Shown here piece after piece: positions 32,551-42,032 of a stretch of 55,909 nt of DNA (positions are counted from its first letter, which is position 1; every line of letters begins with the position of its first letter). The stretch comes from Thermoguttaceae bacterium (GTDB lineage Bacteria; Planctomycetota; Planctomycetia; Pirellulales; Thermoguttaceae). The stretch lies in contig JARKPK010000001.1 of assembly GCA_029975295.1 (NCBI GenBank), forward strand, positions 1 through 55,909, given 5' to 3'. The position numbers and the translations under genes are program-made. Under the pieces are notes generated by a model. The model saw only the letters and a list, made by a program, of their open reading frames with translations, had not been told where the DNA came from and searched no databases.

Positions 32551-33957
32551 GTGAACGACGACAAGGCAAAGCATCTTTCGGGCGCCGAGTTCTGGACCGA
32601 CCAAACGCACGGCCTTTGCGAGCCGCACGGGTCGCCCTCGCTGGCGGCCTCGGCCGAACGCTCCAGTAAACACAACCGGCAGATCGCGGCCGAGATTCCC
32701 TATTTCGAATCGTGGCGCGAACAGGCCAACGCCATCAAGCGCTACGCGCTGATGAACCTCGACAAGCTGTTGGTCGAGTTCGAGCGGAACATGGCGGCCA
32801 AGGGGGCCGAGGTCCTCTGGGCCGCCGATGCCGAAGAGGCCAACCGCCATGTGCTGCGCATCGCCCGCGAGCACCAAGTGCGGAGCGTGGTCAAATCGAA
32901 GTCGATGGTGACCGAGGAGATGGAATTGAACCATGTCCTCGAACAGGAAGGCATCCGCCCGATCGAAACCGACCTGGGCGAGTACATCGTGCAACTAGCC
33001 GGGCAACGGCCGGTGCATATCGTCACGCCCGCGCTGCACATGTCGGCCGAGGATGTGGGCAAGCTATTCGCCGAGAAGTTGGGCGAGCCGTTCAGCGCCG
33101 AACATCAGCGGCTGACCGATATCGCCCGGCGTCACCTGCGCGAAGAGTACTTGCGGGCCGGCATGGGCGTTTCGGGCTGCAATTTCGCCGTGGCCGACAC
33201 GGGCACGATGGTTGTTGTGGAAAACGAGGGCAACGCCGGGCTATCGACTTCGGTTCCGCCGGTGCATGTGGCGCTGATGGGCGTGGAGAAGGTGATCCCC
33301 TCGATCCGGCATCTGCCGGTGTTTCTCAACTTGTTGGCCCGAAGCGGCACCGGCCAAAAGCTGACCACCTACACGCATTTGATCCACGGTCCGCTGCCGG
33401 GCAAGAAGCTTTATGTGATCATCATCGACAACGGGCGCACGAACATCCTGAAAGACCCGGCCGCTTGGCAGTCGCTGTTCTGCATTCGCTGCGGCGCCTG
33501 CCTGAACGCCTGCCCGGTGTATCGGCGCACGGGCGGGTGGGCCTACGGTTGGGTGTACCCGGGGCCGATCGGCGCGATCATCACACCGCATTACCTGGGC
33601 TTCGAGAGGGCGGGCGAACTGCCTTTCGCCTCGTCGTTGTGCGGGGCCTGCGGCGAGGTGTGCCCGGTGAAGATCGACATTCCGCACCAGTTGGTGCATT
33701 TGCGTCATCGGGCGGTCAACGAGCCGTCGCCGATGCGGTCGCCGCTGGAGCGGCTGATGTGGCGCAGTTGGGCCTGGATGATGAAAGGCCCGCGACGCTA
33801 CGCGCTGACCATGTGGGCTGTGAAGATCGGCATCCGCATGGCGAAGTTCCTTCCGTGGCACCCGGGCAAACTCGGGGCGTGGACCCGCGGACGCGAACTG
33901 CCGCAACCCCCGGCCGCAGGCAGTTTCCGCGGTTGGTGGCGCAAAAAGAACAAGTAG
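32551..33957 (+). CDS. lutB: Lactate utilization iron-sulfur protein LutB
   Basis: A 468-residue protein starting at GTG 32551. The N-terminal LUD-type domain (about 60-290) contains VKSKSMVTEEMELNHVLEQEGI and GCNFAVADTGTMVVVENEGNAGLS. Two 4Fe-4S motifs follow: CIRCGACLNACPVY (about 311-324) and CGACGEVCPVKIDIP (about 364-378). A basic C-terminal tail ends the protein. This is the electron-transfer subunit of the LutABC lactate oxidation complex. It follows lutA by three bases; lutC comes 167 bases later. Confidence 0.94.
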   Translation: MNDDKAKHLSGAEFWTDQTHGLCEPHGSPSLAASAERSSKHNRQIAAEIPYFESWREQANAIKRYALMNLDKLLVEFERNMAAKGAEVLWAADAEEANRHVLRIAREHQVRSVVKSKSMVTEEMELNHVLEQEGIRPIETDLGEYIVQLAGQRPVHIVTPALHMSAEDVGKLFAEKLGEPFSAEHQRLTDIARRHLREEYLRAGMGVSGCNFAVADTGTMVVVENEGNAGLSTSVPPVHVALMGVEKVIPSIRHLPVFLNLLARSGTGQKLTTYTHLIHGPLPGKKLYVIIIDNGRTNILKDPAAWQSLFCIRCGACLNACPVYRRTGGWAYGWVYPGPIGAIITPHYLGFERAGELPFASSLCGACGEVCPVKIDIPHQLVHLRHRAVNEPSPMRSPLERLMWRSWAWMMKGPRRYALTMWAVKIGIRMAKFLPWHPGKLGAWTRGRELPQPPAAGSFRGWWRKKNK

Positions 33958-34124
33958 GTTCGGCGCAAAGGCCGAGCGAGAGCGATTCGGTCGGGATGGG
34001 TCCGCCGACAGGGGCCGAGATCGCATCGGCTGGGCAGTGCGGCCGATGATTGTCGGAAAGTGCCGATTGCAGGACAATACCGCGACGAGACGACAGGAAC
34101 CGGCCGGAACGGCTCGGGCGAGCG

Positions 34125-34799
34125 ATGAATAGCCGTCAAGAGATCTTGCAGCGCATCCACCAGCGTTTGGCGGCCGCCGGGCCGATCCGCGACCAGTTCG
34201 CGCCTGCCGCAATGCCGCCGGAACCGAAGGTTTGGCCGATCACTAACCCCGACCGCGGCACGATGGCCGAGCGATTCGCAAGCGAGCTGTCGGCCGTTCA
34301 CGGCGAAGTGCTGCGGCTTCGCAATTTCGACGAGGCGGCCCGGCAGTTCGCCTCGCTGGTCGAGCAAGAGCATTGGGGAACGTTGGCCGCGGCCGATGCC
34401 CCGATCGTTCGCCAGTTGGTTGCGCGCGTACCGGCCGGCGTGGTTGGCTGGATCGACGACACAAGCACCTCTGGGGAGATGGCCGCTGTTTCAGCCGGGG
34501 TGGTTGCGGCCGATGTGCTGTTGGCCGACACCGGAAGCTGCGTGATTGCCTGCCCAACGGTTCAGCATCGTTGGTTGTGCTACTTGCCGCCTGTTTGTGT
34601 GGTGGTGGCTCGGGCGGAGCAATTGGTGGAACACATGCCCGCGGCCTGGCCGCTGTTGAGTGGTCAGGCGGGCGACGCTCAGCGGCGCGGCGAAACGGTG
34701 ATCGTAACCGGCCCGAGCCGCACGGCCGACATCGAGAAGATTCTGATCCTTGGCGTCCACGGCCCGAAGCGGCTGATCGTGGTGCTTGTGGACGAGTGA
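34125..34799 (+). CDS. lutC: Lactate utilization protein LutC (LUD domain)
   Basis: A 224-residue LUD-domain protein. After an N-terminal helical segment (MNSRQEILQRIHQRLAA) it has VVGWIDDTSTSGEMAAVSAGVVAADVLLADTGSCVIACP, the core of the LUD fold, then LPPVCVVVARAEQLVEHM and VTGPSRTADIEKILILGVHGPKRLIVVLVDE, which is the typical ending. It completes the lactate oxidation set with LutA and LutB. The ATG at 34125 was preferred over the frame opening at 34050 because only from there does the sequence match the family. The 167-base gap after lutB is longer than usual for lut operons. Confidence 0.9.
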   Translation: MNSRQEILQRIHQRLAAAGPIRDQFAPAAMPPEPKVWPITNPDRGTMAERFASELSAVHGEVLRLRNFDEAARQFASLVEQEHWGTLAAADAPIVRQLVARVPAGVVGWIDDTSTSGEMAAVSAGVVAADVLLADTGSCVIACPTVQHRWLCYLPPVCVVVARAEQLVEHMPAAWPLLSGQAGDAQRRGETVIVTGPSRTADIEKILILGVHGPKRLIVVLVDE

Positions 34800-35237
34800 T
34801 TTGCTCGATTCGCTCGGTGGAACACCGCGGGCCGGCACATCCTTCCTTCTTACCCCATGCGTGTTAATGTGGGGTTCTTTTCGGTCTTGTAGCGGTTGTG
34901 TAGAGTTTGCGGGTTCGGCACGGCCCGAAAGAAACTTGAAGAAATTTCCCGCGTCGCAACATGCTGTGCTGCAAGACGTTGCACATGCTCGCCTCCGGCA
35001 AGGTTCAGGACATGCATTTGCCACGACGCCATTTGTCGGCAAGATTGCATGGAGGGGACGGACTCGTCGCTGAGTTTCGTCCCATGCGCAGTCATTCTGC
35101 GTAGTAGTGTTCAGGGGATGCCTGCGACGCACGGCCGTTCGGCCGCTGCGCCGAGCTTGGGGCGAACCGACGTGAGCTGGATGGCGTAGCGGCCCGAAGG
35201 GGTTGCGGTCGATGCGCCGTGATGGGGGAGCATGAAC
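34800..35237. other. Intergenic region between lutC and the YTV protein gene
   Basis: A 438-base region with somewhat lower GC in its middle. It carries a possible terminator of the lut operon (34852-34881) and should hold the promoter of the YTV protein. A very long minus-strand open frame crosses it but is antisense to the YTV gene and looks spurious. Confidence 0.35.
34852..34881 (+). terminator. Candidate terminator of lutABC
   Basis: A 6-bp stem ACCCCA/TGGGGT (34852-34857 with 34870-34875) with a 12-base loop is followed by TCTTTT, about 50 bases after the lutC stop. The loop is long and the stem short, so efficiency is doubtful. Confidence 0.35.
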
Positions 35238-36941
35238 ATGAGAATCACTCGTTGCTGGATGACTGCGTGTATTGCCGCCCTTGCCGGATGGTGCCTGCTG
35301 GGGTCGTTCGGCGCCGGCAGCGCCGCGGCCGACATCTGTTGCCCGACCGTGGTGTGCAGCGGGCCGGAGTACAAACTCGTTCATCAATGGGTGTACGACC
35401 AGCGCGAGGTGACGGCCTACCGTGTGGAGTACGAGACCGTCTATGAAGAGCGGCCCGTAACCACGTACAAGCCGGTATGGGAAACGCAGACGCGCGAGTT
35501 GCGTTACACGGTGGCTCGCCCGGTGGTGGAAACGAGCACCCGCGAAGAGCGCTACACGGTAACGCGACCCGTTTACGAGACCCAGATTCGCGACTACAGC
35601 TACAATGTCGTCCGCTATGTAACCGAAACGGCGGAGCGAGAAGAAACCTACAAGGTGCTTCGGCCGATCATCGAGACGGCCGAGCGCGAAGAGGTGTACA
35701 CGGTGCTTCGCCCGGTGGTGGAAACAGCCGAGCGCGAAGAGGTTTATACCGTAATGCGTCCGGTGTGCGAAACGGTGTATCAGCCGCGGTACCACACGGT
35801 GATGCAGCCGGTGGTGACCTGCCGCACGCAACTGGTCGATCAAGGGGGCTTCGCCGAGCAGATGGTGCTCAGGCCGGGACTGCCGGCCAACCGTTTGCGT
35901 TGGCAGCCGGCGCATACGGCGGTCGATCCGATGACGGGCCTGCCCGTGTATCAACGGGGAGGGTTGTATTGGGAGCAAACCCAGCGCGGCCGCTACGAAG
36001 TGCAGCGGGTTTGGCAGCCGAACGTGGTCGCTCAGCAGGTGGAACAGGTGCAATACGTGCCGCAGACGGTGGCCGAGCAGGTTCCGGTGCAGGTCACCCG
36101 GTACCAGCCGGAGCAAGTGGTTCGCCGCGTCCCGTACACGGTGCAACGGATGGTCGAAGAGCGTCAAGTGCGCCGCGTTCCCTATACCGTTCAGCGGATG
36201 GTCGAAGAGGTTCAGGTGCGCCGCGTTCCCTACACGGTCAGCCGGCCGGTGGTCGAGCGGGTCGAGAACAAGGTGCCGGTGCAGGTTTGCCGCATGGTGA
36301 CGGAAGAACACGTCCGCCCGGTGGAAGTGCGGTCGATGAAGATGGTGTATGAGGAGCGGGTGGATCAGCAGCCCGTCCATGTTTGCCGCATGGTGGCCGT
36401 GGAAGAAACCGTTCGCGTTCCTCGCGTGGTGCAAAAGGTGACGCCGGTGACCTACACGCAGTACACGCCGCGATTGGTGTGCGCCCGGATTCCGTTGGAC
36501 GCCTGCGGCAACCCGATCGCGGACCCGATGCCGGCGTCCGATTCGCTTTTGCAGCCCGTATTGCAGCCCGAACTGAGCAACCCGGCGCCCCGCAACGCGC
36601 CTACGCCGGCCAAAAAGGCGGCGGAGACAGACCTGCCCGCCCCGCCGACGCCGGGCGCCGATTCGGGCGCACGTTCGGCCTTCTCGGTGCCGCGCACAGG
36701 AACAGCGGCAGGCTCCGAATCGGCCGCTGCTTCGGCGGAGAAGCCCCAAACGGGCGCGCCCGCTTCGGCCGGCGCCGCCGAAACCCCGGCATCGGCCGGG
36801 GCCGGCAATGCGACCGCTCCGGCGCCCAGTCCGCCTGCCGGCATGAGCCCGGCGCCCTCGCCCGCGGCGCCTTCGGCAACGGCAAAGCCATTCAGCCTGA
36901 AGGATCCCTATCCCGCTCTGCTTGTGCCGCCGAAGCCGTAG
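35238..36941 (+). CDS. Secreted YTV-repeat protein (planctomycete cell-surface type)
   Basis: A 567-residue exported protein. The signal peptide is MRITRCWMTACIAALAGWCLL followed by GSFGAGSAAA. Residues 40-190 are tandem repeats of about 16 residues, such as ETAEREEVYTVLRPVV, in at least five copies. Residues 270-390 hold a second repeat block of about 14-16 residues with RRVPYTVQRMVEE. The repeated YTV tripeptide is the hallmark of the planctomycete YTV family, known from cell-wall proteins of Rhodopirellula. Cys residues occur near the N-terminus (DICCPTVVCSG) and as VCRM. A Pro/Ala-rich tail ends the chain. GGGGGAG lies seven bases before the ATG at 35238 but only one before the ATG at 35232, so 35238 is preferred. 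Confidence 0.88.
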   Translation: MRITRCWMTACIAALAGWCLLGSFGAGSAAADICCPTVVCSGPEYKLVHQWVYDQREVTAYRVEYETVYEERPVTTYKPVWETQTRELRYTVARPVVETSTREERYTVTRPVYETQIRDYSYNVVRYVTETAEREETYKVLRPIIETAEREEVYTVLRPVVETAEREEVYTVMRPVCETVYQPRYHTVMQPVVTCRTQLVDQGGFAEQMVLRPGLPANRLRWQPAHTAVDPMTGLPVYQRGGLYWEQTQRGRYEVQRVWQPNVVAQQVEQVQYVPQTVAEQVPVQVTRYQPEQVVRRVPYTVQRMVEERQVRRVPYTVQRMVEEVQVRRVPYTVSRPVVERVENKVPVQVCRMVTEEHVRPVEVRSMKMVYEERVDQQPVHVCRMVAVEETVRVPRVVQKVTPVTYTQYTPRLVCARIPLDACGNPIADPMPASDSLLQPVLQPELSNPAPRNAPTPAKKAAETDLPAPPTPGADSGARSAFSVPRTGTAAGSESAAASAEKPQTGAPASAGAAETPASAGAGNATAPAPSPPAGMSPAPSPAAPSATAKPFSLKDPYPALLVPPKP

Positions 36942-37072: not shown

Positions 37073-38821
37073 TCACTTCGTTTGCAGCGGAATCACGCCG
37101 TCCCAGCCGGGCGGCGGAGTGCGGTTGTGCTGGACGATGGCCGCGGTCAGGAAGTCTTTGGCTTGATCGGCGGCCGGAATCCGTTGCAGTTTGTCGAGCG
37201 CTTCCGACCATCGTGACGCAAGGAACGCGTCGAGAGCCGACTCGTAGATGGCGAGGTGCTCGTCGGCAAGGGGCGATTCCGGGCCGGCAGGCGGAAGCAG
37301 CTCGCTGACTTCCATCGCCGTCTCCACGCCGTAGGGCCGAACGACGGCCAAACGCCGCACGCGGGCAACCTCGACCGGAACGTCGCGCCGCACTTCGGCC
37401 GCCGTGGCCCGATCGATGAGAATCGGCGCCCGCAGCAGCTTGGTCATCCCTTCCAATCTCGATGCGAGATTGACGACCGGACCGAAGACGGTGACCTTCA
37501 CCTGATCGACCGTGCCGATCTTGCCGGCCACGGCGCGGCCCGCCGCGATCCCGATGCCTGCCCGAAAGCCGGCCGTGGCGTCGAACTGGCGTCGGATGGC
37601 CAGCGCGGCCACAGTGGCGCGGACGGCCATGTCGGGCTGCGGCAACGGCCATCCCCAGAAGCCCATCGCCGCATCGCCCTGAAAATCGCCGACAACGCCG
37701 CCCTGTTCGCGGATTTGCCGAGTGGCCACCCCCAACGCATTGCTCACCCGATGGAGCAAGCCCATCAGGTCGCGCGCCTGGCGTTCCGACTCGCGCGAGA
37801 ATCCCCGCAGGTCGCAGAACATCACGCACACATCGGTTTCCCGCGGCGCGAGCACTTCGTCGGGATCTTGGCTCATCAGCGTGTCGAGAACCACGGGCGA
37901 GAAGAACGGGCTGAGCGTGGCGTGGCGGTGTTCGAGCAGCCGCATTTGCCGAAGCGCGCCGAGCATGGCGGCCGCCAACTCGGTGAACTTCACGTCCTCG
38001 CGCAAGTCAGTCGGATCGGTCGAGTGGCGCGATGCCGTTTCGGCTGCGAACCGGCCGGCCACATACAGCGCCCACGGCGCGCCGGCGCCGCCCACCGGAG
38101 TGCAGAACGCCCAATCGTACTGCTCGCTGGCCGTGAAGCTTTGCGCCGCTGGCGACGCCGGGCCGCGCCACACGTGCAGAACGCTTTGGCCGCGCGCAAT
38201 CGCCTCGCGGATCAAGCCGACGCTGGGCCGAAAGTCGTCGGCCACGGCCAAACGCTGATCCCACTGCAACACCTTGGGAGCGGCAGGCGTTTGCCGGTCG
38301 GCCGCCACCACGGCCGCGGCGTCGGCCCGCGGCACGCCGGCCAACAACATGCTTACCAGCCGCACGCACAGTTCGCTTTCGCCCGCCGCGCCGCTAATCA
38401 CCTCGGGCAACCGCGACAGAACTTCGAGCCGGTGGTCGGGATGCCGGAAGGGGATTTGCTTGAGGTACTGGGCGCTGAAGGCCTGCTCGCGCAAGGGCGC
38501 GGGCAAATCGGCCGAAACGTCGGCACGCTGATCGGCCAGCGTGAAGGTCGTTTCGCCGACGACGAAATGCTCGCCCGGACCGATGGCGAACCGATCCGCC
38601 TCGCGGCCCGAATAGAAAACCGGATTGCGCGCCTCGGGCAAGCGAACAACTTCCAAACGCCGCCCATTCCATTGCATCATCACATGCCGCCGCGAAACGG
38701 CTGCGTCCCACGGGACGGCCCAGTTGCCCGCGGTTCGGCCGAGAACCACGGCATGGTCGGCGGGCAAGCTCCGCCGCCAACGCTGCTGCAACTCGGGGCC
38801 TTGAGCGATCAGATCGGGCAT
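37073..38821 (-). CDS. FHA-GAF-like-class III nucleotide cyclase
   Basis: A 582-residue cytoplasmic signalling protein. An N-terminal FHA domain (about 20-100) has Gly-Arg at 28-29 and SRRH at 43-46, the phosphothreonine-binding signature. A GAF-like region (about 130-290) follows. The class III adenylate/guanylate cyclase domain starts with VCVMFCDLRGFSRESE (metal-binding Asp337), continues with GDFQGDAAMGFWG (Asp383) and TVFGPVVNLASRLEG with transition-state Asn451 and Arg455. The residue that usually sets purine specificity (Asp or Thr) is Pro448. A short helical C-terminus follows. The ATG at 38821 begins the FHA region; the open frame upstream overlaps the kinase gene in another frame. 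It lies 95 bases after the kinase gene on the same strand, so both are probably one operon. Confidence 0.88.
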   Translation of the reverse strand: MPDLIAQGPELQQRWRRSLPADHAVVLGRTAGNWAVPWDAAVSRRHVMMQWNGRRLEVVRLPEARNPVFYSGREADRFAIGPGEHFVVGETTFTLADQRADVSADLPAPLREQAFSAQYLKQIPFRHPDHRLEVLSRLPEVISGAAGESELCVRLVSMLLAGVPRADAAAVVAADRQTPAAPKVLQWDQRLAVADDFRPSVGLIREAIARGQSVLHVWRGPASPAAQSFTASEQYDWAFCTPVGGAGAPWALYVAGRFAAETASRHSTDPTDLREDVKFTELAAAMLGALRQMRLLEHRHATLSPFFSPVVLDTLMSQDPDEVLAPRETDVCVMFCDLRGFSRESERQARDLMGLLHRVSNALGVATRQIREQGGVVGDFQGDAAMGFWGWPLPQPDMAVRATVAALAIRRQFDATAGFRAGIGIAAGRAVAGKIGTVDQVKVTVFGPVVNLASRLEGMTKLLRAPILIDRATAAEVRRDVPVEVARVRRLAVVRPYGVETAMEVSELLPPAGPESPLADEHLAIYESALDAFLASRWSEALDKLQRIPAADQAKDFLTAAIVQHNRTPPPGWDGVIPLQTK

Positions 38822-38916
38822 GGCTGGGCGACTCACGGGGAATCGGAAAACGGGCAGAACTCGGGCCGCCGGCCGGCATGGGCGACGGCGCGGCGGCGGC
38901 GGACGGCCGCAGCCGG

Positions 38917-41031
38917 TCACGGCGGTTTCGGCAACCGCGAGGCGGGCTTGGTCAACCGCACGGCCAGCGCCCAAAGCCCCCACAGCAGCGTAATCACCAA
39001 CACAAAGGCCGCGATGCCGTGGACGATCAATTGCCTCCGCAGGCGGGAAATCGTTTCTCCGATCGCCGCCTGATGATCCTCTTGCACTACGACCATCCAA
39101 CCCGACGGCTCGCCGCGAACCAAAATCGGGGCGGCCTGCGCGATCCAATGACGATCGAAATCCTCGCCGTCCGGGTCGTCGGCCAGCGGGTCGTGATAAT
39201 GGGCGGCCGAGGGGGCCGACGGTTCCAGCGGAAGCTGCTCCACCTCGACGCAACGGCCGCGAAAGCGGTCGGGCACTCGGCCCTCGTTGGCCAACAGACG
39301 GTCGTACAACGGGTGTTGCAGCACCAGCCCTTGGTGATCGCCCGCCCGTCCGTCGATCAACGCGGCGAACTGCCGTTCGCCCTGGCGAAGCGCGAGCAAG
39401 CGGCCCACTTCAACCGTCATCGCCACCACGCCGAGAAAGTTCGTTCCCTCGCGGTCTTCGAAGATCGGCGCGGAAATCGCCACAATCCAGCGGCCGGTGG
39501 CTTGCGACCGAAACACCGCCGATAGATGCGGCTTGCCGAGCTGATGCCCCGGCGGCGGCCGCCACGTCGGCGCTTCGTCGCGCAGCCCGCCGTGGAAGTA
39601 GCTTCGCCAGCCGAACGCCCGGCCGATGGTCGAGCCCTCGGGCACCCGCGCCGTGGAAATGCCGCGGGCGTCGCAGACGAACCAGCTCGACGCCTCTTCG
39701 CCGTCGGGACGCATCGCGTCGGGAATGATTTCGTCGAACAGTTCCTGAATCGCCTTGCGCTCGGGTTGATTGCGGAACTCCTCGGCAAGCTGCTCCGCCT
39801 CGGCCGCCGGAAGATCCGGCGCATTGAGCCGTTGGGCCAACGACTCGAACCGTTCTTGCGCCCGGGCCGCCAACAACAACTCGCGGAGCGAACGCGATCG
39901 CGAAACCCGCTCGACGGCCTCGAACCGCCGCTCCAGCTCGTTGGCGGCCGTACGCGCCACATACTGCGCGGCAAAGGCGTTGCTCTGCACGGCGCGGGCC
40001 GTCAAAGCCGCGTCGGACTGCCTCAGCGTTGTGCGGAAACCGACCCAAGCGAACCAAAGCACCACGGCCAGAAGCAACGCCGGGCCGATCGCCCCCAGCA
40101 CGATCAGCGGGCGCAAGGCGCGGCGGGCCGCGCGGGCCCGAAGGGCCTCGAGCACGGCCTGCACGTTGGGAAACCGCCGGTCGGGCGACTTGGCCAAGCA
40201 GCGGTCGATGATGTCGGCCAAGGGGCGATCCACTCCGGGAACCCGCCGGTGGTCCGAAGGCGGCGGCGTCTCGGCAATCATCGCCCGGTACGCAGCCAGC
40301 CGCTCGCGCAATTCGCCCGTGTCCGAAAACTGCTCCTCGCGTTCGGGCGAGCAATAGGGCGGGCGGCCGGTCAGCATCGAATAGAGCAAGGCCCCCAAAG
40401 CGTAAACATCCCAGCGGGCATCGGGAACGGCGTCGAGGTCGGCCTGCTCCGGCGCCATGTAGAACAGCGTGCCCAAGGCCGGCGCCTGCTCGTGCGACAA
40501 TCGCGACTGCCCGAAATCGGCCAACCGTGGTTTGTCGTCTTGATCCAACAGAATGTTGGCCGGCTTCAAGTCGCAGTGCAACACGCCTTTGTTATGCGCG
40601 TGAACCAAACCGATCGCGGTCTCTTCAAACAATCGCACCGCCTGATCAACCGGCAACGGACCGTCGGCCAGCCGCTGAGCCAGCGAACCGCGCTCGACGT
40701 ACTCCATGATGTAGTACGGAGGCTCGGCATCCCAACCCACGCCCACGAGTTGCACCACATAACGGTCGGCGTAAAGAAACGCCAGCTTCTCCACCTCGCG
40801 GCTCAACAGCGACCAATCGAGCCCGCCGCGATGGGCATAGAACTTGATCGCCACGCGGCGGCCGGTGTTTCGCTCGACGGCCACCCACACTTCGCCGTAG
40901 GCGCCGCCGCCGAGAAAATGTTCGACGTCGTAGCCGGGCACCGAAGTCGGCGGTTGCCCGCGCTTCAGGCTCAACTCGCGCGCTCGCTGACGCTGTGGCT
41001 GATCTTGAGCTTCGGTCAGATCACTGCTCAT
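38917..41031 (-). CDS. Transmembrane Ser/Thr protein kinase with external Cache-like sensor domain
   Basis: A 704-residue Hanks-type kinase. Kinase motifs: GGGAYGEVWVA (about 41-51), Lys63 in VAIKFY, the catalytic loop HCDLKPANI (Asp154), DFGQSRL (172-178) and MAPEQ. The Arg before the catalytic Asp is Cys, so it is a non-RD kinase. A first transmembrane helix (about 308-332) leads to a large extracytoplasmic region (about 335-665) with the layout of a double Cache domain: SWFVCDARGISTARVPEGSTIGRAFGWRSYFHGG, then AVFRSQATGRWIVAISAPIFEDREGTNFLGVVAMTVEV. A second helix (about 668-691) returns inside. It would sense a small external ligand and phosphorylate internal targets; the adjacent FHA-cyclase is the obvious candidate. 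The ATG at 41031 precedes the conserved N-terminus. Confidence 0.9.
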   Translation of the reverse strand: MSSDLTEAQDQPQRQRARELSLKRGQPPTSVPGYDVEHFLGGGAYGEVWVAVERNTGRRVAIKFYAHRGGLDWSLLSREVEKLAFLYADRYVVQLVGVGWDAEPPYYIMEYVERGSLAQRLADGPLPVDQAVRLFEETAIGLVHAHNKGVLHCDLKPANILLDQDDKPRLADFGQSRLSHEQAPALGTLFYMAPEQADLDAVPDARWDVYALGALLYSMLTGRPPYCSPEREEQFSDTGELRERLAAYRAMIAETPPPSDHRRVPGVDRPLADIIDRCLAKSPDRRFPNVQAVLEALRARAARRALRPLIVLGAIGPALLLAVVLWFAWVGFRTTLRQSDAALTARAVQSNAFAAQYVARTAANELERRFEAVERVSRSRSLRELLLAARAQERFESLAQRLNAPDLPAAEAEQLAEEFRNQPERKAIQELFDEIIPDAMRPDGEEASSWFVCDARGISTARVPEGSTIGRAFGWRSYFHGGLRDEAPTWRPPPGHQLGKPHLSAVFRSQATGRWIVAISAPIFEDREGTNFLGVVAMTVEVGRLLALRQGERQFAALIDGRAGDHQGLVLQHPLYDRLLANEGRVPDRFRGRCVEVEQLPLEPSAPSAAHYHDPLADDPDGEDFDRHWIAQAAPILVRGEPSGWMVVVQEDHQAAIGETISRLRRQLIVHGIAAFVLVITLLWGLWALAVRLTKPASRLPKPP

Positions 41032-41432: not shown

Positions 41433-42032
41433 ATGATGTGGGCTTGGGCAGTACTGTTGCTGATTCTCGGCCTCGGATTGGCCGTCATGGAAGTCTTCTT
41501 TGCTTCCGCGGGCATCCTCGGCTTTTTGGCGGCCGCGTCAATCATCGGCGCAGTCGTGCTGGGGTTTCAGTATGCTCCCGAGTTCGGCATTGGCCTAATG
41601 GTGGCCACGCTGGTCGGCCTGCCCGGTGTGGTGGTCGCCGCCTTCCGCTATTGGCCGCGGACCCGGCTGGGGCGCCGCGTGCTGCTGTCGGCCCCGCGCG
41701 AACAAGACGTGCTGCCCGACGAAGACGAGCGGCTTTGGCTGCGCAGCGTGGTGGGCAAACGCGGTCGGGCGAAGTGCAAGATGCTGCCCGGCGGCTTGGT
41801 CGTTGTCGAAGGCCGGACGGTCGAGGCCGTCAGCGAAGGCCAGCCGATCGAGGCGGGCGAGCCGGTCGTCGTCGTGCAGGTGCGCGGCAAGCGATTGGTC
41901 GTGCGGCCCGACACCGAACCGAACCCCCAGGCTGAAGACCCGCTCCGTCGCCCGATCGAAACGATTTTGGGCGAACCATTCCTTGCCGACGATGCGCCCG
42001 GCGAACCCGACGGCCCGCGCGGCGCGCACTAA
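41433..42032 (+). CDS. NfeD-like membrane protein
   Basis: A 199-residue protein with two or three N-terminal membrane helices (AVLLLILGLGLAVMEVFFASAGILGFLAAASIIGAVVLGF, then GLMVATLVGLPGVVVAAF). A cytoplasmic C-terminal OB-fold follows: VVGKRGRAKCKMLPGGLVVVEGRTVEAVSEGQPIEAGEPVVVVQVRGKRLVVRP, the typical NfeD C-terminal pattern. The final 35 residues are Pro/Glu/Asp-rich. NfeD proteins usually work with a stomatin/flotillin-like protein or a membrane serine protease; neither is adjacent here. Two ATGs in a row (41433, 41436) are equivalent; no Shine-Dalgarno is evident. Confidence 0.8.
   Translation: MMWAWAVLLLILGLGLAVMEVFFASAGILGFLAAASIIGAVVLGFQYAPEFGIGLMVATLVGLPGVVVAAFRYWPRTRLGRRVLLSAPREQDVLPDEDERLWLRSVVGKRGRAKCKMLPGGLVVVEGRTVEAVSEGQPIEAGEPVVVVQVRGKRLVVRPDTEPNPQAEDPLRRPIETILGEPFLADDAPGEPDGPRGAH

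What the first reader, a model, noticed from the sequence alone, without database searches (positions are those of the whole stretch)
37073..41031. Kinase with external Cache sensor coupled to an FHA-GAF-cyclase
A transmembrane Ser/Thr kinase with a large external Cache-like domain is followed 95 bases later by a cyclase with an N-terminal FHA domain. FHA domains bind phosphothreonine, so a complete pathway can be read: external ligand, kinase activation, phospho-dependent FHA engagement, cyclic nucleotide synthesis. I do not know of a described system with this exact pairing.
Basis: partly seen in the sequence, partly recalled or inferred. Interest (0 to 1): 0.8.

Follow-up and report, generated by a model that had tools for sequence, protein, structure and literature searches.

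The report
Sensor kinase paired with FHA-gated cyclase
Planctomycete bacteria carry a membrane sensor kinase and a partner cyclic-nucleotide synthase that have been kept together through evolution, and the kinase has an invariant threonine in its tail that looks like the phospho-switch the synthase reads.

Summary
The gene pair is real: kinase 38917-41031(-), 704 aa, 95 bp, cyclase 37073-38821(-), 582 aa. In an even draw of 392 phylum genomes the same 38 hold both proteins; beyond them are five weak FHA-only matches and one distant kinase match. The genes are neighbours in 25 of 38, unlinked in 13. The new finding is a tail before the kinase domain, [D/E]-x-T-x-x-Q: Thr in 79 of 79 kinases examined, TxxQ in 74 of 79, against one of 44 other planctomycete kinases at that register. 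Eight kinases of one genus without any class III cyclase lack it but keep the kinase active site. FHA phospho-binding residues are conserved (Arg29, Ser43 77 of 77, Asn66 76 of 77). Best reading: the Cache kinase phosphorylates its own Thr6, the FHA domain docks there in trans, and the cyclase is switched on, like Bdellovibrio DgcB but with the phospho-tail on the kinase. The adenine-selecting Lys is Asp (75) or Glu (2) in 77 cyclase rows, hinting at cGMP. Phosphorylation, binding and product are untested; the Cache call is weak by score, the GAF call structural only.

The parts
38917..41031 (-). Transmembrane Ser/Thr kinase, 704 aa (stop included)
   Evidence: ORF; Pkinase 6e-43; model with PknB-like fold Z 26.2
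41005..41016 (-). Thr6-Glu-Ala-Gln9 of the N-terminal tail, the TxxQ motif proposed as FHA docking site
   Evidence: Thr in 79 of 79 and TxxQ in 74 of 79 kinases; TxxQ in 0 of 8 kinases of genomes without a cyclase; residues 1-10 have mean pLDDT 34, i.e. probably flexible
40969..40971 (-). Ser21, second invariant residue of the tail
   Evidence: 79 of 79 in the cyclase-bearing lineages, 0 of 8 in genus g31
40165..40932 (-). Protein kinase domain, residues 34-289; catalytic loop HCD (non-RD)
   Evidence: K63, E79, C153, D154, D172 invariant across 87 kinases
40039..40107 (-). First transmembrane helix, residues 309-331
   Evidence: hydropathy; helix in model
39052..40038 (-). Predicted extracytoplasmic Cache-like sensor region, residues 332-660, with WRSYF motif (Arg476)
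   Evidence: dCache_1 in 23 of 26 orthologues; 3by9 E=0.009; Arg476 79 of 79
38962..39033 (-). Second transmembrane helix, residues 667-690
38822..38916 (-). 95-base intergenic gap; no terminator-like site found in it
37073..38821 (-). FHA - GAF-like - class III nucleotide cyclase, 582 aa (stop included)
38522..38821 (-). FHA domain, residues 1-100; Arg29, Ser43, His46, Asn66
38042..38494 (-). GAF-like alpha/beta domain, residues 110-260 (identity not proven)
   Evidence: secondary structure of model; no sequence match
37913..38014 (-). Long helix, residues 270-303
   Evidence: model
37286..37846 (-). Class III cyclase domain, residues 326-512: D337, D383, N451, R455 invariant; D379 at the adenine-Lys position; T444

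Best explanation
The two genes form one receptor pathway of planctomycetes. The Cache-like domain between the two membrane helices senses a small external ligand and controls the inner kinase domain. The active kinase phosphorylates Thr6 in its own flexible N-terminal tail ([D/E]-x-pT-x-x-Q). The FHA domain of the cyclase, which starts at the protein's first residues and so has no tail of its own, docks on that pThr in trans. Docking at the receptor, probably through dimerisation and the long helix 270-303, switches the class III cyclase on (or places it at the membrane). Shown here: the pair, its co-inheritance, intact kinase, FHA and cyclase key residues, and the invariant tail Thr whose motif is absent in a lineage that lacks the cyclase. 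Inferred: ligand sensing, Thr6 phosphorylation, FHA-Thr6 binding, direction of regulation (activation) and product.
For: Co-inheritance: in an even draw of 392 phylum genomes the FHA-GAF half profile and the Cache half profile ring in the same 38 genomes; outside them are five weak matches confined to the FHA part and one distant kinase match (G500). In the family (119 genomes), 36 have the cyclase orthologue and 34 of these the kinase; the other two (G010, G040) are incomplete genomes whose cyclase sits at a contig end. Neighbourhood: adjacent, same strand, kinase first in 19 of 34 (family) and 25 of 38 (phylum draw); of 16 loci measured, 11 have gaps of 120 bp or less; none of six other window proteins was found in the 39 usable loci compared, some of them short. 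Tail: Thr in 79 of 79 kinases, Gln at +3 in 74; in the 71 in exact register D/E at -2 in 62 and Ser at +15 in 71, while most other tail positions vary. The tail is kept where the genes are unlinked. Control: of 44 other STPK loci (14 of this genome, 30 of the 102 matches in three relatives) one has TxxQ at that register. Natural loss: eight genomes of genus g31 kept a kinase but have no PF00211 match; TxxQ 0 of 8 and Ser21 0 of 8, while K63, E79, D154, D172 stay 8 of 8. FHA: R29 and S43 77 of 77, N66 76 of 77; the one exception, G333, is also one of the five kinases without Gln at +3. An acid at -2 of the Thr also occurs in DgcB (Glu12, Thr14; PMC6733907 section 9).
Against: No biochemical evidence exists here. 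The g31 loss is one genus, so in effect one event, and its kinases also changed their Cache domain (Arg476 0 of 8) and the whole tail, so the tail loss could be general divergence; two of the eight have a Thr at the aligned column, without Gln at +3. Gln at +3 is not a preference I know for FHA domains (recalled: D, I, L or V are usual). The Thr could serve another FHA protein or another purpose. The genes are unlinked in 13 of 38 and 15 of 34 genomes, and only 24 of the 69 loci show the kinase in the stretch fetched (many are short). Docking could not be modelled: the folding tool takes single window proteins only. No cyclic-nucleotide receptor could be tied to the pair: PF00027 proteins are in 32 of 36 cyclase genomes of the family but also in 28 of 83 others (table), and the Crp-like one of this genome has Pro where the phosphate-binding Arg is expected (motif recalled).
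Confidence: 0.63

Rival explanations
1. The pathway is real but the link is direct phosphorylation of the cyclase, or binding of FHA to another phosphosite (kinase activation or juxtamembrane region, or a third protein); the Thr6 tail serves a different purpose such as kinase regulation.
For: Ser21 in the tail is as invariant as Thr6, so the tail may be a larger docking or autoinhibitory element; Thr188 and Ser176 (26 kinases) of the activation segment are invariant too. Recruitment of GarA to phosphorylated PknB is a precedent (recalled; the entry 6i2p appears, its paper was not read).
Against: Thr188 is the general P+1 Thr (recalled) and is equally invariant in the cyclase-free g31 kinases, 8 of 8, so it does not track the cyclase; TxxQ and Ser21 do.
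Confidence: 0.22
2. The genes are merely co-inherited members of a larger planctomycete signalling core, without direct contact; adjacency is ancestral gene order.
For: 13 of 38 and 15 of 34 pairs are unlinked; in the draw of 392 both proteins are confined to one class, so vertical descent explains part of the co-occurrence.
Against: Adjacency survives in the window's order, in another order of the class and in two Singulisphaera records, order Isosphaerales, while other window neighbours were not found beside the pair; within one patchy family cyclase and kinase are mostly kept or missing together; FHA plus invariant Thr tail is the complementary pair expected of direct contact.
Confidence: 0.12
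3. The cyclase domain is degenerate and acts as a regulated scaffold, not an enzyme.
For: The Lys that selects adenine is replaced by Asp in 75 of 77 rows and Glu in 2, and the Pfam score of the window protein is modest (33 bits).
Against: Both metal Asp, the transition-state Asn and Arg are present in 77 of 77 rows; an acid at the Lys position with T/G/S at the second position resembles guanylyl cyclases, which have Glu there (PMC4215837, passages read).
Confidence: 0.1

Closest known systems
Bdellovibrio bacteriovorus DgcB (FHA-GGDEF), PMC6733907: abstract, passages, section 9 and part 2 of section 13 read
   Same: N-terminal FHA gates a C-terminal nucleotide cyclase; the ligand is a flexible tail with a conserved Thr and an acidic residue at -2; its authors propose an upstream sensory kinase.
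   Different: GGDEF (c-di-GMP) and not class III; the phospho-tail is on the cyclase itself and its kinase is unidentified. Here the candidate tail is on a Cache-like kinase, often the adjacent gene, and the cyclase has no tail.
Sorangium cellulosum kinase-tail-FHA-GGDEF fusion (BE21_29150), as described in PMC6733907
   Same: Kinase, Thr tail, FHA and cyclase in one system.
   Different: One fused protein with GGDEF output; the paper names no Cache receptor and calls it putative.
GarA / OdhI with PknB / PknG
   Same: FHA protein with a Thr in an N-terminal tail that is phosphorylated (PMC6733907 section 9; kinases partly recalled); their solved structures are found by the FHA profile.
   Different: Tail binds its own FHA and occludes partner binding; no cyclase.
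Myxococcus xanthus Pkn2 (kinase + cyclase-like domain, one protein), PMC1262709, passages read
   Same: Ser/Thr kinase joined to a class III cyclase-like domain and a membrane segment.
   Different: Covalent fusion; the passages name no FHA or Cache, and call the role of the cyclase-like part unclear.
Trichodesmium Tery_2857, STK with GAF and CYCc domains, PMC2176072, passages read
   Same: Kinase, GAF and cyclase in one system.
   Different: One fused protein listed by domain only; no FHA named for it.
TOMM system kinase/cyclase fusion (TIGR03903)
   Same: Kinase linked with a cyclase.
   Different: Single fused model of 1267 positions; the window kinase scores 56 bits against a cut-off of 706, over kinase residues 56-223 only.

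Membership tests
Hanks-type Ser/Thr protein kinase | Pkinase domain with Lys, catalytic Asp, DFG Asp | tested here: met
   PF00069 147.6 bits, cut-off 31.7; K63, D154, D172 in 87 of 87; catalytic loop is HCD, i.e. non-RD, in 87 of 87
dCache_1 sensor | Pfam dCache_1 above its cut-off | tested here: inconclusive
   25.4 bits against 45 in the window protein; 23 of 26 orthologues match at E<=0.01; the fold list was filled by kinases
FHA domain | Pfam FHA match and pThr residues (Arg, Ser, Asn; SxxH) | tested here: met
   PF00498 in 18 of 27 orthologues, not in the window protein itself; R29 77/77, S43 77/77, H46 75/77, N66 76/77
GAF domain | GAF fold or profile match | tested here: inconclusive
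   no Pfam GAF in 27 members or in 12 cut-out domains, no PDB sequence match; order of helices and strands fits
Class III nucleotide cyclase | Guanylate_cyc domain, two metal Asp, Asn and Arg | tested here: met
   33.2 bits, cut-off 21.9; D337, D383, N451, R455 77/77 rows; CyaB 3r5g Z 19.8, rmsd 2.3 over 180 residues
Adenylyl cyclase (substrate signature) | Lys at first purine position | tested here: not met
   Asp 75, Glu 2, Lys 0 of 77 rows; position fixed by the alignment to OaPAC
Guanylyl cyclase (substrate signature) | Glu at first purine position | tested here: not met
   Asp in the window protein; Glu only in G205 and G223; second position T/G/S is of the GC type per PMC4215837
DgcB-type self-gated FHA cyclase | Thr tail in front of FHA on the cyclase itself | tested here: not met
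   Model starts with strand 3-7. Start codons of orthologues were chosen near the window's start, but in 17 of 28 rows it is the first start codon of the open frame and in two more there are five extra residues
TOMM kinase/cyclase fusion | TIGR03903 above cut-off | tested here: not met
   56.3 against 705.75 bits

The most novel reading that the evidence does not exclude
A receptor-kinase pathway for bacterial cGMP: an external small molecule (a carboxylate, if the WRxYF stretch shared with 3by9 means the same ligand type) activates a Cache kinase that autophosphorylates a D/E-x-T-x-x-Q tail, and an FHA-gated class III cyclase with an unusual Asp-Thr purine pair docks there and makes cGMP. This would be a two-protein, phospho-docked bacterial counterpart of eukaryotic receptor guanylyl cyclases, conserved through much of a class of bacteria.
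Probability: 0.33. Interest if true: 0.82.

Novelty: new variant of a known kind. Interest (0 to 1): 0.63.

Why it matters
Planctomycetes encode many Ser/Thr kinases (102 Pkinase matches in three genomes), and my ten searches found no paper that describes this pair. Here a kinase, its likely phosphosite, its reader domain and an enzymatic output can be named from sequence and tested with purified proteins. If right, it links STPK signalling directly to cyclic-nucleotide synthesis by phospho-docking in trans, and could add a bacterial cGMP route.

Tried and rejected
Neighbours as parts of the system: YTV protein, NfeD, LutB, LutC, the M90-like protein and DUF3800 were not found next to the pair in the loci compared (40 loci, one of them a 101-base stretch without use, several short), so they were left out. 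Crp/PF00027 receptor: all eight g31 genomes lack PF00027, which looked like loss of a whole limb, but 28 of 83 cyclase-free family genomes have PF00027 and 4 of 36 cyclase genomes do not, the own Crp-like protein lacks the expected Arg (motif recalled), and the other PF00027 protein of this genome was not linked to the pair (a script to pick such proteins out failed); not claimed. GAF by sequence: no match. NCBIfam gave no cyclase family at E<=0.01. VIA-align rows for the cyclase model lie mainly at residues 295-518, so FHA and GAF were barely tested by fold (Foldseek list one search likewise headed by cyclases); the kinase rows lie at 29-305, so Cache was barely tested. Plasmid search: 146 records, all under 60 percent identity and none covering 80 percent of the query. 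Literature: ten searches; searches returned none; some searches returned papers; I read passages of PMC1262709, PMC2176072 and PMC4215837 and parts of PMC6733907, saw the others as listings only, and none describes this pair in what I saw; the library holds open-licence PMC papers only.

Rows dropped before counts: from the 79 kinases (36 family, 36 phylum draw, 7 other named records) I left out fragments (G044, G019, G043), paralogues at 25-29 percent identity (L148, L149, L159, L170) and records that repeat genomes already counted. The 79 include three genomes (G002, G009, G027) whose assembly shows no cyclase but whose kinase runs to a contig end. The 77 cyclase rows include four second copies (G012, G333, G166, G416) and one gene entered twice (L016 and L046, both G023). 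Only 30 of the 102 matches served as controls, because loci were given for those; the pair's own kinases are among the 102 but not the 30. In three of the 44 controls (L087, L088, L090) the glycine loop was misplaced by the script, so their register is unreliable. A looser control window (22-46 residues) gave TxxQ in 12 of 45 including the pair's own kinase; nine of these are a T-x-(W/Y/F/L)-Q at 25-26 residues, apparently of another domain, so the register matters. One g31 kinase has TPPQ 14 residues before the loop, outside the register.
Full report
WHAT IS THERE. The minus strand carries a kinase gene (38917-41031, 704 aa) and, 95 bases downstream, a cyclase gene (37073-38821, 582 aa). No terminator-like site was found between them. 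The genome has a single PF00211 cyclase match and 15 Pkinase matches. The kinase has a kinase domain (34-289), two hydrophobic stretches (309-331 and 667-690) and a region between them that matches dCache_1 below the curated cut-off. The cyclase has an N-terminal FHA domain, a GAF-like domain seen only in the model, a long helix and a class III catalytic domain. Mean pLDDT is 83.6 and 81.7; the first ten residues of the kinase have 34.

IS THE PAIR MORE THAN CHANCE. In the family (119 genomes) the cyclase search matches 42 genomes; by my reading of scores and coverage 36 of these are orthologues and six are weak partial matches. The kinase's C-terminal half matches 47. Of the 36, 34 have the kinase; the two others, G010 and G040, are 81 and 73 percent complete and their cyclase lies at a contig end. 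Of the 13 kinase-only genomes, eight are one genus (g31), three (G002, G009, G027) have the kinase cut at a contig end on the side where the cyclase would be, and two (G019, G043) show only fragments. In an even draw of 392 genomes from the phylum, profiles of the FHA-GAF half and the Cache half ring in the same 38 genomes, all in the window's class. The miss list shows two further same-class genomes with neither (G374, G490) and then only more distant ones; it is cut, but sorted by kinship, so I take it as 38 of 40. Fisher p is 4e-52, which ignores shared descent and is description only. Outside the 38 there are five weak matches to the FHA part alone and one distant kinase match (G500).

NEIGHBOURHOOD. 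Kinase then cyclase on one strand is found in 19 of 34 family genomes with both and 25 of 38 of the phylum draw; counted by me from the coordinates, many checked in fetched loci. G016 has them 3.7 kb apart. The rest are unlinked. Six other window proteins were not found beside them. Among 69 loci, 24 show the kinase in the stretch fetched; many of the others are short or end early. Records with the pair bear titles such as Pirellulales and Thermogutta MAGs and Singulisphaera acidiphila DSM 18658, order Isosphaerales.

THE TAIL. All 26 aligned family kinases share Thr6 in a short tail whose other residues mostly vary. I then collected 79 kinases: 36 family, 36 of the phylum draw, 7 other named records. 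Thr is present in 79 of 79 and Gln at +3 in 74 of 79. In 71 the TxxQ Thr lies exactly 34 residues before the glycine loop, where D or E stands at -2 in 62 and Ser at +15 in 71. The five without Gln are G015 (Leu), G333 (Tyr), G474 (Pro) and the two Singulisphaera (Leu, Ile). As control, 45 Pkinase loci (15 of this genome, 30 from three relatives) were checked: TxxQ at register 32-36 is in two, the pair's own kinase and one other, so 1 of 44; three of the 44 were not reliably registered.

A NATURAL LOSS. Genus g31 (G045-G052) keeps a kinase matched by the Cache-half query over most of its length but has no PF00211 match in any of eight genomes, 85 to 93 percent complete. None of the eight kinases has TxxQ in register and none has Ser21, while catalytic residues are intact. 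Two have a Thr at the aligned column without Gln at +3. The Cache Arg476 is lost or unaligned as well, so these kinases changed more than the tail, and the genus counts as one event.

In 77 cyclase rows the FHA residues Arg29 and Ser43 are invariant and Asn66 is kept in 76; the exception, G333, is one of the five with a changed +3 residue. The cyclase starts directly with the FHA domain: in 17 of 28 rows the start is the first start codon of the open frame, so a DgcB-like tail of its own is missing. Both metal Asp, Asn451 and Arg455 are invariant. The position of the Lys that reads adenine holds Asp in 75 and Glu in 2; the second position is Thr 69, Gly 5, Ser 3. Guanylyl cyclases have Glu and C/S/T/H/A/G at these places (PMC4215837, passages), so GTP is a plausible substrate, but Asp is not the textbook residue and the product is open.

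HOW IT PROBABLY WORKS. An external ligand acts on the Cache-like domain. The profile's one PDB match is the sensor protein 3by9 (DctB, recalled), sharing an N-F-A-W-R-x-Y-F stretch (E=0.009); that a carboxylate is the ligand is a guess from this. The kinase domain, a non-RD kinase with invariant Cys in HCD, phosphorylates Thr6; FHA docks; the cyclase dimer is activated or concentrated at the receptor. DgcB of Bdellovibrio shows that FHA occupancy by a phospho-tail can switch a cyclase (PMC6733907). The step from a tail in cis to a tail on the kinase in trans is the new element.

LIMITS. Nothing here shows phosphorylation, binding or catalysis. Conservation of a tail Thr fits FHA docking but does not prove it. 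No receptor for the nucleotide was found. Six of ten literature searches returned nothing and none of the papers returned described the pair in what I saw; the library is limited to open-licence papers, so 'undescribed' is provisional.

Noticed in passing
L161, L162, L163, L164, L167 (genus g31), upstream of the kinase on the same strand: A gene of about 170-220 aa containing Y-x-I-P-C-x-C-G and a second C-x-C pair, zinc-ribbon-like, sits just before the kinase in five of eight g31 loci that lack the cyclase; a possible replacement partner.
   Followed up: no
L262, L263 (G166, G416), L264 (G333): Second copies of the FHA-GAF-like cyclase with Gly in place of Thr444; no kinase of this family was found in the fetched stretch beside them.
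   Followed up: partly
L269:3307-4605(+) (G432): One ORF joins an FHA-like stretch (NPIKFG...FQIGRTTF) to a stretch matching the kinase at 23 percent identity, perhaps a cis version of the pair's logic.
   Followed up: no
window 35232-36941 (+): Protein with seven Pfam YTV repeat stretches.
   Followed up: no
window 32551-34799 (+): LutB-like and LUD-domain (LutC-like) genes next to each other, lactate utilisation by name.
   Followed up: no
window 41433-42032 (+): NfeD-like gene divergent from the kinase; not found beside it in the loci compared.
   Followed up: partly
L307:1384-2097(+) (own genome, contig C145): Crp/Fnr-like regulator with Pro at the place where the cyclic-phosphate Arg is expected (recalled motif), followed by an ApbE-like ORF by my reading.
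   Followed up: partly
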